Source of the DNA: Lacinutrix neustonica
GTDB lineage: Bacteria; Bacteroidota; Bacteroidia; Flavobacteriales; Flavobacteriaceae
DNA length: 64,000 nucleotides
Reading direction: 5' to 3'
Assembly (NCBI RefSeq): GCF_026625145.1
Contig: NZ_CP113088.1
Coordinates: 3,265,501 to 3,329,500 of the forward strand
Shown here one piece after another: positions 1 through 64,000 of this stretch. The notes under the pieces are model-generated. The model was given only the letters and a program-made list of their open reading frames with translations, searched no databases and was not told the origin of the DNA. A program made the position numbers and the translations under genes. Each line of letters starts with the position of its first letter. The first letter of the stretch is position 1.

Positions 1-99
1 TCCTTTGATCATCGTGTAGTTGATGGCTTTTTAGGAGGTTCATTTGTACGTCGTGTTGCAGATTATTTTGAGCAATTTGATGTTAATAGAAAAATATAG
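1..99 (+). CDS. 2-oxoacid dehydrogenase E2 acyltransferase, C-terminal end (partial)
   Basis: Only the last 32 codons lie in the window. They begin with the catalytic signature SFDHRVVDG of the dihydrolipoyl acyltransferase domain (the His is the active-site base), followed by a short helical tail ending in a TAG stop. This domain forms the E2 core that passes acyl groups from lipoyl-lysine to CoA. A fused E1 gene lies 1.3 kb downstream with ilvE between them, so this is most likely the E2 of a branched-chain 2-oxoacid dehydrogenase. The 5' part is outside the window, so substrate class is inferred from the neighbours only. Confidence 0.85.
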   Translation, partial: SFDHRVVDGFLGGSFVRRVADYFEQFDVNRKI

Positions 100-195
100 A
101 GCATTTGTTATTACAACCATCACGTTGAGTGCCATTGTAATACAAGCAGCAATGAATACCGTTTCCAGATCGCGTGAAACGACAAATAATTATCG

Positions 196-1263
196 ATGAA
201 ATACAGCATTACCACAACAAAAGTAAAAGCATCTAAAGTGAATACTTTAGATTTTAACAACATTCCACTAGGTACCACCTTTACAGACCACATGTTTGTT
301 TGTGATTATGACAACGGGCAATGGGTGAATCCTAGAATAGAACCGTTGCACCTTATTCCTACGCATCCCGCGGCCATGGCGTTGCATTATGGGCAAGCTA
401 TTTTTGAGGGGATGAAAGCGACGCTAGATACTCATGGAAACCCTATGTTGTTTCGTGCCGATAGAAATGCAGCACGATTAAACACGAGTGCAGAACGCAT
501 GGGTATGCCAAATTTTCCGGAAGACTTATTTGTAGAAGGATTGAAACAATTAGTGGCTCTAGAGCACAATTGGATTCCGCCAAAAGCGGGTAGTGCATTA
601 TATTTAAGGCCATTTATGTATGCCGATGAACCCTTTATAGGGATGCGTGCTGCAACCCATTATAAATTTATTATAATGGCATCACCAGCAGGTCCCTTTT
701 TTAGTAAGCGCATAAAATTATGGGCTGAAAAACAATACATTCGGGCAGCAGCAGGAGGGACAGGAGAAGCCAAAGCAGCTGGTAATTATGCAGCAGCCAT
801 TCGCCCAACAGAATTGGCAAAAGCGAAAGGGTATGATCAAGTATTGTGGTTAGATGCTGTAGAACATAAATATATTCAGGAAGTAGGGACCATGAATATT
901 TTCTTCAAAATTGATGGACAATTCATCACACCAAAACGAGATGGTTCTATTCTAGACGGTATCACACGAATGAGTGTGATTACAATTTTAAGAGACAAAG
1001 GCTACGAGGTTATTGAACGGGCCATTACGATAGATGAAATTAAGGCCGCTTCAAAAGCGGGTAAGTTAGAGGAAGCGTTTGGAACAGGAACGGCGGTTGG
1101 TATTGCATACATTCAAGAGATTGGAGTAGATGACCAAACCATTCATGTTTCTAATGAAAGCCCTGTAGGATTAGAGGTTAATAATACATTGGATGCTATA
1201 AAAACAGGCAAAATTGAAGATAAATTCAATTGGATGATCAAGATTGAAAAGGAATTGGTTTAA
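196..1263 (+). CDS. ilvE: branched-chain amino acid aminotransferase
   Basis: A 355-residue fold-type IV PLP aminotransferase that interconverts leucine, isoleucine and valine with their 2-oxoacids, using 2-oxoglutarate/glutamate. The length and the motif GGTGEAKAAGNYAA (residues about 188-201, with the PLP-binding Lys near 193) match the long, mammalian-like BCAT subgroup. The ALHYGQAIFEGMKA segment (about 62-75) and the EVGTMNIFF segment are also typical. It starts at ATG 196 and sits between an E2 end and an E1 gene, so it probably supplies 2-oxoacids to that dehydrogenase as the first step of branched-chain amino acid breakdown. No lesion is visible. Confidence 0.93.
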   Translation: MKYSITTTKVKASKVNTLDFNNIPLGTTFTDHMFVCDYDNGQWVNPRIEPLHLIPTHPAAMALHYGQAIFEGMKATLDTHGNPMLFRADRNAARLNTSAERMGMPNFPEDLFVEGLKQLVALEHNWIPPKAGSALYLRPFMYADEPFIGMRAATHYKFIIMASPAGPFFSKRIKLWAEKQYIRAAAGGTGEAKAAGNYAAAIRPTELAKAKGYDQVLWLDAVEHKYIQEVGTMNIFFKIDGQFITPKRDGSILDGITRMSVITILRDKGYEVIERAITIDEIKAASKAGKLEEAFGTGTAVGIAYIQEIGVDDQTIHVSNESPVGLEVNNTLDAIKTGKIEDKFNWMIKIEKELV

Positions 1264-1351
1264 AATACGGTCTTCTCATTCGAAATGAAGTAAGAATCCA
1301 TACGGAAGTAAATAAAATAAATAGATTTCTGCCTACGCAGGAATGATAGAT

Positions 1352-62220: not shown

Positions 62221-62400
62221 ACTCAATATTCTCTTAATGCTTAATTTCATACCTTTTAAAAACCCATGTTTTTCTAATGCTTCTTTAGCGTAATGGGAAC
62301 ACGTGGGTTGGTAGCGGCATGTCGCCGGTGTAAAAGGAGATATAAAGGTTTGGTAAATCTTTATAACAAAAAGAAAAGGCGTTATTAATAGTTTTTTCAT
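62179..62400 (-). CDS. yidD: membrane protein insertion efficiency factor YidD
   Basis: 73 residues. Small amphipathic protein that helps YidC insert inner-membrane proteins. The conserved stretch IKIYQTFISPFTPATCRYQPTCSHYAKEALEKHGFLKG, with its three Cys, and RILSCHPWGGKGYDPVP at the end are hallmark. The last twelve codons lie inside the 114-bp repeat. It lies between cysS and lgt on the same strand. Confidence 0.92.
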   Translation of the reverse strand: MKKLLITPFLFVIKIYQTFISPFTPATCRYQPTCSHYAKEALEKHGFLKGMKLSIKRILSCHPWGGKGYDPVP

Positions 62401-62442
62401 AATCCATAAGTCTGTTTGCTTGAAGAGACTTAACCGGAGGAT

Positions 62443-63928
62443 TTAATTAGTGGAAAACGTCGTTCCCTCACGACCATCATTTAATTGTATGCCCACCGCT
62501 TCAAGTTCATTGCGTATTTTATCAGATAATGCAAAGTCTTTATTGGCTCGGGCTTCCTGTCTCAATGTAATGAGTAATTCAACCGCTCCGGATAATTTAT
62601 CGGTACCAATTATACTATCTTCAGCAGTACTTTTCAGCCCTAAAACATCAAATACAAAATTGTGTATGGTCGTTTTAAAAAGGTTTAAATCTTCTTTAGT
62701 GATGGTTGTATGACCTTCCTTTATAGCATTAATGTAATTTACGGCTTCAAATAAATTCGCAATCAGAATGGGAGTATTGAAATCGTCATTCATCGCATCA
62801 TAACATTTTTGCTTCCAATCTTGAATATCGAAGGAGGTCGTGTTAGAGGTCTTTAAGTTTTCTAAATCGTCCACTGCATGCATTAATCGATGAAAACCTT
62901 TTTCACTTGCCAAAAGGCCATTGTTTGTTAAATCTAAAACACTTCTGTAAGCAGATTGCATCATGAAAAAGCGCACTACATTAGGATTGTATGCTTTAGA
63001 CATGATATCATTCTTACCGTGAAAGCAATTCTGAAGGGTTTATTATGTTTCCCGTAGATTTAGACATGCGGGCACCATTTAGTTCAAGCATGTTAGCATG
63101 CATCCAGTAATTTACTGGGGCTTTTCCTATAGCCGCTTGGTTTTGTGCAATTTCACACTCATGGTGTGGGAATTTCAAATCCATTCCGCCCCCATGAATA
63201 TCAAACTGATCCCCTAGGTATTTAGTGCTCATGGCTGTACATTCTAAATGCCAACCAGGAAAGCCGTCACTCCATGGTGATGGCCAACGCATAATATGAG
63301 TCGGTTCTGCTTTTTTCCATAAGGCAAAATCTTGGGGATTTTTTTTGTCGCTTTGACCGTCTAGGGCGCGCGTGTTGTGGATTAAATCCTCTAATTTTCG
63401 TTTACTTAAAATACCATAATCATTGGTTTCATTGTATTTGTGTACATCAAAATAAACAGAGCCATTCACTTCATACCCAAAGCCATTCTTAATGATGGTT
63501 TTGATAAGCTCAATTTGTTCAATAATATGGCCAGTAGCCGTAGGTTCAATACTTGGAGGTAATAAATTAAAAGTATTAATGACATTATGGAAATCTACAG
63601 TGTAACGCTGCACGACTTCCATGGGCTCAATCTCTTCTAATCGTGCTTTTTTAGTAATCTTATCTTCGCCAATATCGGCATCATTCTCTAAATGCCCTGC
63701 ATCCGTAATATTTCTAACATAACGCACTTTATATCCTAAATGCTTCAAATAACGAAAAATCATATCAAAAGACATAAATGTTCTTACGTTACCTAAATGA
63801 ACGTTACTGTAAACTGTTGGGCCGCAAACATACATGCCTACATACCCTTCATGAATGCTCTTAAAAGCTTCCTTTTTTCCAGTTAAAGAATTATAAATAT
63901 GTATTTGCTGATCTTGGTAAAGCTGCAT
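62443..63928 (-). CDS. cysS: cysteinyl-tRNA synthetase (one frameshift)
   Basis: About 494 residues. Class Ia synthetase: HIGH-like GPTVYSNVHLGNVRTF, SPWSDGFPGWHLECTAMS with zinc-ligand residues (Cys near 28, Cys in HLEC, His and Glu in PHHECEIAQ) and KMSKS-like RMSKSTGNI, then the DALR-type anticodon region ending QLNDGREGTTFSTN. At 63017-63022 the gene strand reads TCACGG where TCYGG is needed; repair gives NPSELLSGKNDIMSKAYNPNVVRFF. The site is again one base longer. Essential gene, so the break is probably artificial. Confidence 0.94.
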
Positions 63929-64000
63929 GGGTATTATTTGTTATAGTAATAGTCGTAGTTTAGAAAACGGAAACTAAAAATTTAAAATTTAGTATCTAAT

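What the first reader, a model, noticed from the sequence alone, without database searches (positions are those of the whole stretch)
1..64000. About 35 gene-breaking lesions sit on one five-base motif, CCRGA
Eighteen sites where protein families need CCAGA carry an extra base. Sixteen read CCGAGA (plus-strand positions 8745, 10987, 13375, 15545, 23054, 24551, 37778, 38805, 38866, 41222, 47455, 49797, 51328, 51656, 56377, 57279) and two read CCAGGA (24916, 29822). Thirteen sites where families need CCGGA read CCGA (2117, 7901, 8398, 14046, 21384, 36690, 39879, 41861, 48731, 49384, 52445, 59361, 59807). Two read CCGTA (56825, 61308), and two TCYGG sites read TCGCGG or TCACGG (39896, 63017). Only about seven lesions lie elsewhere. 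Restoring the motif restores a conserved protein at every site I checked. Both strands are affected. Random mutation or pseudogene decay would not pick one motif in gyrB, ffh, secDF, lgt, cysS and hemL alike.
Basis: seen in the sequence. Interest (0 to 1): 0.85.

Follow-up and report, generated by a model that had tools for sequence, protein, structure and literature searches.

The report
Sequencing misreads at one DNA motif
Most of the broken genes in this stretch are probably intact in the living marine bacterium: the assembly misspells the five-letter word CCAGA, most likely because the cell chemically tags that word and a nanopore sequencer then misread it.

Summary
The lesions are real letters of the assembly and cluster on one motif far beyond chance, but the motif is CCAGA, not CCRGA. 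In 384 kb of this genome CCAGA is the most depleted five-mer against two same-genus relatives (124 seen, 756 expected) and CCGGA the most enriched (432 against 82). Of 79 CCAGA sites of the closest relative, G005, aligned to the window, 4 are kept, 19 read CCGGA, 8 CCGAGA, 8 CCGA. The effect is genome-wide. Best explanation: a motif-specific DNA modification that a nanopore basecaller misreads, a published kind of artefact. The likeliest maker is a C5-cytosine methyltransferase paired with an HNH endonuclease elsewhere in the genome; CCAGA m5C methylation is reported in Neisseria. Platform, modified base and enzyme are inferred, not shown.

The parts
47516..48802 (+). gyrB fragment, profile positions 194-596 of 641; interrupted near 47455 and 48731
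   Evidence: NCBIfam DNA gyrase subunit B; both sites align to CCAGA in G005
23079..24098 (+). ffh fragment, profile positions 104-428 of 428; lesion near 23054 upstream
   Evidence: TIGR00959; at 23054 G005 has neither CCAGA nor CCGGA
55699..58262 (+). secDF in at least two pieces (55699-56412 and 57285-58262), profile positions 1-203 and 512-820 of 993; lesions at 56377, 56825, 57279
   Evidence: NF009585; all three sites align to CCAGA in G005
14685..15644 (+). hemL fragment, profile positions 2-289 of 429; lesion at 15545
   Evidence: NF000818; at 15545 G005 has neither CCAGA nor CCGGA
41704..42690 (+). asparagine synthase B fragment, profile positions 273-554 of 554; lesions at 41222 and 41861
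   Evidence: NF006949; both sites align to CCAGA in G005
52432..53139 (+). malate dehydrogenase fragment, profile positions 80-305 of 313; lesion at 52445
   Evidence: NF004863; aligns to CCAGA in G005
63014..63928 (-).
   Evidence: PF01406 positions 2-268 of 301; aligns to CCAGA in G005
1343..2152 (+). Pyruvate dehydrogenase E1 alpha-like fragment; lesion at 2117
   Evidence: TIGR03181 positions 54-254 of 341; at 2117 G005 has neither word
39495..40178 (+). QueE-like frame with lesions at 39879 and 39896
   Evidence: TIGR04322; both sites align to CCAGA in G005
1..64000 (.). Window-wide signature: 12 CCAGA, 62 CCGGA, 24 CCGAGA on both strands; part of a genome-wide pattern. The candidate methyltransferase lies outside the window (genome positions about 2,245,225-2,246,706).

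Best explanation
The cell modifies the asymmetric word CCAGA throughout its genome. Native DNA was read by a nanopore sequencer whose basecaller had not learned this modification, so mainly the central A was called as another letter, dropped, or joined by a spurious letter. The misreading was consistent enough to survive consensus. Most CCAGA sites therefore appear as CCGGA, CCGA, CCGAGA and similar strings, and about a quarter become frameshifts. Shown here: the motif, its genome-wide extent, damage to housekeeping genes, and dependence of the outcome on flanking letters. Inferred: nanopore platform, modification as cause, m5C as the base. Likeliest enzyme (inferred, about 0.6): the 493-aa C5-cytosine methyltransferase with an N-terminal helix-turn-helix at genome positions about 2,245,225-2,246,706, next to an HNH endonuclease gene.
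For: CCAGA most depleted and CCGGA most enriched five-mer in 384 kb. At 79 relative CCAGA sites only 4 kept, indels 22.8%; controls keep about half (CCAGC 25 of 48, GCAGA 37 of 74, CCAAA 84 of 138). Isolated indels: 14 of 22 on the motif against 1.07% background. Central A changed at 43 of 70 sites, 100 of 453 in eight control words; survival of CCAGA runs from 0.54 of expectation (A_T flanks) to 0.03 (G_A) and 0 (three flank pairs). Other stretches of the genome: 44 aligned sites, 6 kept. Whole genome: 339 CCAGAA against 2,330-3,703 in twelve same-genus genomes. At six Trp-phase sites four lose the Trp or the frame; the other two no longer carry the motif. Median open frame 173 aa against 246 and 271 in two relatives. 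Published precedents: Listeria GCAGC and GCTGG errors removed by whole-genome amplification (PMC10687267); Dcm m5C made about 70% of consensus errors with then-current ONT basecallers (PMC6591954). CCAGA is an m5C motif in Neisseria. The genome has one C5 methyltransferase with an adjacent HNH gene.
Against: No reads, no platform record and no modification data were seen. A/T run lengths look near normal, so nothing but the motif errors and two A/T-run indels points to nanopore. The Listeria paper found mismatches, not indels, as the main error; here indels are frequent. Residual CCAGAA is 126 on one strand and 213 on the other over the contig (p = 2.7e-6), unexplained. Other methyltransferases in the genome could be the maker. 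G287 and G358 carry the same enzyme pair with ordinary CCAGAA counts, which fits a platform artefact but does not show specificity.
Confidence: 0.9

Rival explanations
1. Same artefact, but the modification is made by an adenine methyltransferase of the genome (the 1014-aa Type IIG enzyme or the 228-aa DPPY enzyme) and is m6A.
For: An intact Type IIG enzyme is present (PADLOC model, 1351 bits) and Type IIG enzymes can have short asymmetric sites (recalled). A to G confusion near methylated bases is reported for Kit 14 data (PMC11610573 passages). The altered letter is an A.
Against: CCAGA is documented as an m5C motif; an m5C on the second C would put the error on the next letter, which is where it is (inference).
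Confidence: 0.25
2. The genome truly lost CCAGA through selection against the site or a motif-specific mutator.
For: The depletion is genome-wide and a restriction-modification pair is present.
Against: Housekeeping genes such as gyrB, ffh, secDF and hemL are broken at once. Four of six Trp-phase sites are destroyed. Indels at 22.8% of sites are not what avoidance gives. The depletion is seen in each of 17 stretches. Two genomes carrying the same enzyme pair are not depleted.
Confidence: 0.03
3. Ordinary pseudogene decay or random assembly error, with the motif picked out by chance.
For: Two off-motif isolated indels lie in A/T runs, as in ordinary long-read error.
Against: p = 7e-23 for the motif among isolated indels; sixfold loss of one word and fivefold gain of its one-letter neighbour.
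Confidence: 0.01

Closest known systems
Modification-mediated nanopore errors in Listeria monocytogenes, motifs GCAGC and GCTGG (PMC10687267; parts 1 and 2 of 5 read)
   Same: Thousands of consensus errors in one pentanucleotide, genome-wide, in ONT-only assemblies; attributed to a lineage-specific modification.
   Different: There mismatches dominate and indels are few; here 18 of 79 aligned sites carry indels. There proven by amplification; here inferred. Motif differs.
Dcm (CCWGG, m5C) errors of ONT basecallers (PMC6591954; passages)
   Same: Near-identical motif core, systematic consensus errors.
   Different: CCAGG is not visibly affected here (19 of 30 kept); the affected word is asymmetric CCAGA.
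CCAGA m5C methyltransferase NEIS0771 of Neisseria meningitidis (PMC7973814, PMC7046676; passages)
   Same: Same word; cytosine methylase; type IIS in one paper's table.
C5 methyltransferases in LlaJI-type loci on Acinetobacter and Vitreoscilla plasmids
   Same: About 57% identity over the C5 domain including the variable region.
   Different: Partner genes are an AAA ATPase and a LlaJI-family endonuclease, not the HNH protein; specificity not given.

Membership tests
Modification-mediated nanopore consensus errors | Errors concentrate in one short motif, genome-wide | tested here: met
Modification-mediated nanopore consensus errors | Error outcome depends on sequence context around the motif | tested here: met
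   Retention from 0.54 to 0 by flanking letters
Modification-mediated nanopore consensus errors | Assembly made from native DNA on a nanopore platform | not testable with these tools
   No record data; one contig and 84.46% completeness are only suggestive; A/T runs look near normal
Modification-mediated nanopore consensus errors | Errors vanish with amplified DNA or short reads | not testable with these tools
   No reads available
CCAGA-specific m5C restriction-modification system | C5-cytosine methyltransferase with conserved domain | tested here: met
   PF00145 286 bits, TIGR00675 above cut-off
CCAGA-specific m5C restriction-modification system | Linked endonuclease gene | tested here: met
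   HNH_2 protein next to it; the pair recurs in G287 and G358
CCAGA-specific m5C restriction-modification system | Specificity for CCAGA and m5C product | not testable with these tools
   No sequence of a proven CCAGA enzyme was compared and no methylation data exist here

The most novel reading that the evidence does not exclude
The genome carries a CCAGA-specific m5C restriction-modification pair (HTH-C5 methyltransferase plus HNH endonuclease), and the assembly errors are its fossil methylome. Scanning public single-contig genomes for a depleted word with an enriched one-letter neighbour would then reveal enzyme specificities without raw signal.
Probability: 0.5. Interest if true: 0.45.

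Novelty: new member of a known kind. Interest (0 to 1): 0.3.

Why it matters
A species in a public genome set is represented by an assembly in which, extrapolating from the rates, roughly 6,400 of 7,700 CCAGA sites are misspelled and roughly 1,700 carry indels. Pseudogene counts, completeness and gene trees that use it are affected. The signature (one five-mer lost, its one-letter neighbour gained) is a cheap screen for such assemblies and points to the modified motif.

Tried and rejected
Rejected: CCRGA as the motif (CCGGA at 0 of 26 aligned sites in the relative; CCGGA is gained). Rejected: true motif avoidance, pseudogene decay, chance (see rivals).

Tried without result or with mixed result: Rfam (0 matches at gathering threshold) and ARAGORN (0) on the window. 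Homopolymer lengths as a platform test: near normal. Paper searches for CCAGA with methyltransferase and nanopore (0 papers), with methylome (2), with REBASE (the same 2). Same artefact elsewhere in the family: by my reading by eye of the table of 397 genomes, this genome has the lowest ratio of CCAGAA to control (0.19) and G328 the next (0.24); G328 has fewer CCAGAA per Mb. In G328 and G139 other CAG words are low too and CCGAGA is lower than here, so I took composition as the likelier cause and went no further. Gene-neighbourhood loci of more distant genomes against the window are much less clear than G005: CCAGA 162 sites, 2% kept, 11% indels, but the nine other words tried were kept at only 6-23%. 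In the other stretches the nine other words were kept at 0% (CCGGA, n = 2), 17% (CCTGA) and 32-58% (the rest), against 14% for CCAGA. Plasmid homologues of the methyltransferase gave no specificity.

Rows dropped: 18 of 22 alignment pieces (bit score over 500) were used; sites with flanking identity under 70%, 75% (profile, 67) or 80% (indels) were left out, hence 79, 73 or 70 sites.

Papers: PMC10687267, parts 1 and 2 of 5 read; PMC6591954, PMC7973814, PMC7046676, PMC11610573, PMC12392509, passages only; all others, search listings only.

Full report
What the window is. The window is positions 3,265,501-3,329,500 of a single-contig genome of 3,905,328 bases with 84.46% completeness. The nearest named GyrB matches are Lacinutrix, Olleya and Psychroserpens, Flavobacteriaceae; that these are mostly marine is recalled. 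Twelve other genomes of its genus were searched; G005 is closest by GyrB (98%).

Checking the letters.

Which motif. I compared five-mers of 384 kb of this genome (16 stretches of 20 kb plus the window) with 461 kb of G005 and G007. CCAGA is the most depleted (124 seen, 756 expected; runs of N set aside), CCGGA the most enriched (432 against 82); the six-mer CCGAGA is 144 against 32. A motif-blind alignment to G005 (45,494 columns) agrees: of 89 frameshifting indels in G005 ORFs, 18 one-base indels had CCAGA at the gap in the relative and none had CCGGA; many of the other 71 lie in poorly aligned stretches or form compensating pairs (my reading). With strict filters 14 of 22 isolated one-base indels fall on CCAGA, against a background of 1.07%. 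Of 79 relative CCAGA sites 4 are kept; 19 read CCGGA, 8 CCGAGA, 8 CCGA, 5 CCCGA, 5 CCTGA, 4 CCGTA, the rest scattered; some, such as CCCGA and CCTGA, may be true synonymous differences. Controls: CCAGC 25 of 48 kept, GCAGA 37 of 74, CCAAA 84 of 138, CCAGG 19 of 30, but also CCTGA 15 of 50 and CCACA 15 of 49; the median over five-mers is 38%, CCAGA 5%. Its indel rate, 22.8%, is the highest of the five-mers with at least 25 sites; overall 1.5%.

Where in the motif. The central A differs at 43 of 70 sites (controls 100 of 453) and the G at 15 of 70 (56 of 453); the two C's and the last A do not exceed controls; the base after the motif is slightly raised (22 of 70 against 100 of 453). Survival of CCAGA depends on its neighbours: 0.54 of expectation for A_T, 0.28 for T_T, 0.03 for G_A, 0 for three pairs. 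A signal model predicts such dependence; a selective or mutational cause does not obviously do so.

Extent. Other stretches, against G005 and G007: 44 aligned CCAGA sites, 6 kept, 20% indels. In each of 17 stretches CCAGA is low (5-12) and CCGGA high (14-62; the window is 64 kb, the rest 20 kb). Whole genome: 339 CCAGAA against 2,330-3,703 in the twelve relatives.

Consequences for genes. Profile matches show truncated or split gyrB, ffh, secDF, hemL, malate dehydrogenase and asparagine synthase B and a class I (C) tRNA synthetase. The median open frame in the samples is 173 aa, against 246 and 271 in G005 and G007. At six sites where G005 has TC-TGG with Trp in frame, four lose the Trp or the frame, and two differ only before the TGG and so no longer carry the motif. 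A free-living cell could hardly bear all this.

Mechanism. Modified bases disturb nanopore current and cause errors that recur at the same locus and resist consensus (PMC10687267). Dcm m5C in CCWGG made about 70% of consensus errors with then-current ONT basecallers (PMC6591954). Newer work shows purine and pyrimidine confusion at strain-specific motifs (PMC11610573), while another study found methylation behind only 42 (6.5%) of the differences (PMC12392509), so an effect on most sites of a motif is strong for this class. The modified base is not shown here. A modified second C, as in Dcm, would disturb the next letter, where the errors are; this is inference.

Which enzyme. The genome has one C5 methyltransferase match. 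Its open frame is 493 aa with an N-terminal HTH, followed by a 374-aa HNH protein. It also has three N6_Mtase-family matches: one HsdM-like by its neighbours (my reading), one 1014-aa Type IIG enzyme, one that I recognise as PrmC-like (recalled); and one 228-aa DPPY methyltransferase. Not every methyltransferase family was searched. The C5/HNH pair recurs in G287 and G358 (methyltransferase 83% each, HNH 61% and 33%). Both are multi-contig assemblies with ordinary CCAGAA counts (1,336 and 3,412). That fits an artefact tied to platform, but does not prove specificity. C5 enzymes of G001, G005 and G011 align only over about 200 residues at 27-40%. CCAGA is listed as an m5C type IIS motif in Neisseria meningitidis, supported by MspJI cleavage, with CCAGR seen in a second study. 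I put about 0.6 on the C5/HNH pair.

Against, or unexplained. No reads were seen; the platform is inferred. A/T run lengths look near normal. Residual CCAGAA is 126 on one strand and 213 on the other (p = 2.7e-6), while CCAGA in the sample is 61 and 63 (summed); consensus tie-breaking is only a guess. The comparison with distant loci is noisy.

Verdict. It is an assembly artefact of a known kind. In my searches I found no paper on CCAGA as a nanopore error motif; those searches cover one open-licence library only.

Noticed in passing
whole genome G000, of which the window is part: Residual CCAGAA is unequal between strands (126 and 213; p = 2.7e-6), which arbitrary contig orientation should not give.
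   Followed up: partly
G328 and G139 (L168-L181): Two genomes of another genus have few CCAGA and many CCGGA (2.8 and 16.8, 4.9 and 28.5 per 10 kb), but other CAG words are low too; composition is the likelier cause.
   Followed up: partly
L164 (Acinetobacter schindleri plasmid), 3408-3863: A very short patch repair endonuclease gene lies just before the C5 methyltransferase homologue, as next to Dcm-like enzymes (recalled).
   Followed up: no
L158, 6025-9069 (genome about 850,025-853,069): Intact 1014-aa Type IIG restriction enzyme-methyltransferase with no CCAGA, CCGGA or CCGAGA in the gene.
   Followed up: partly
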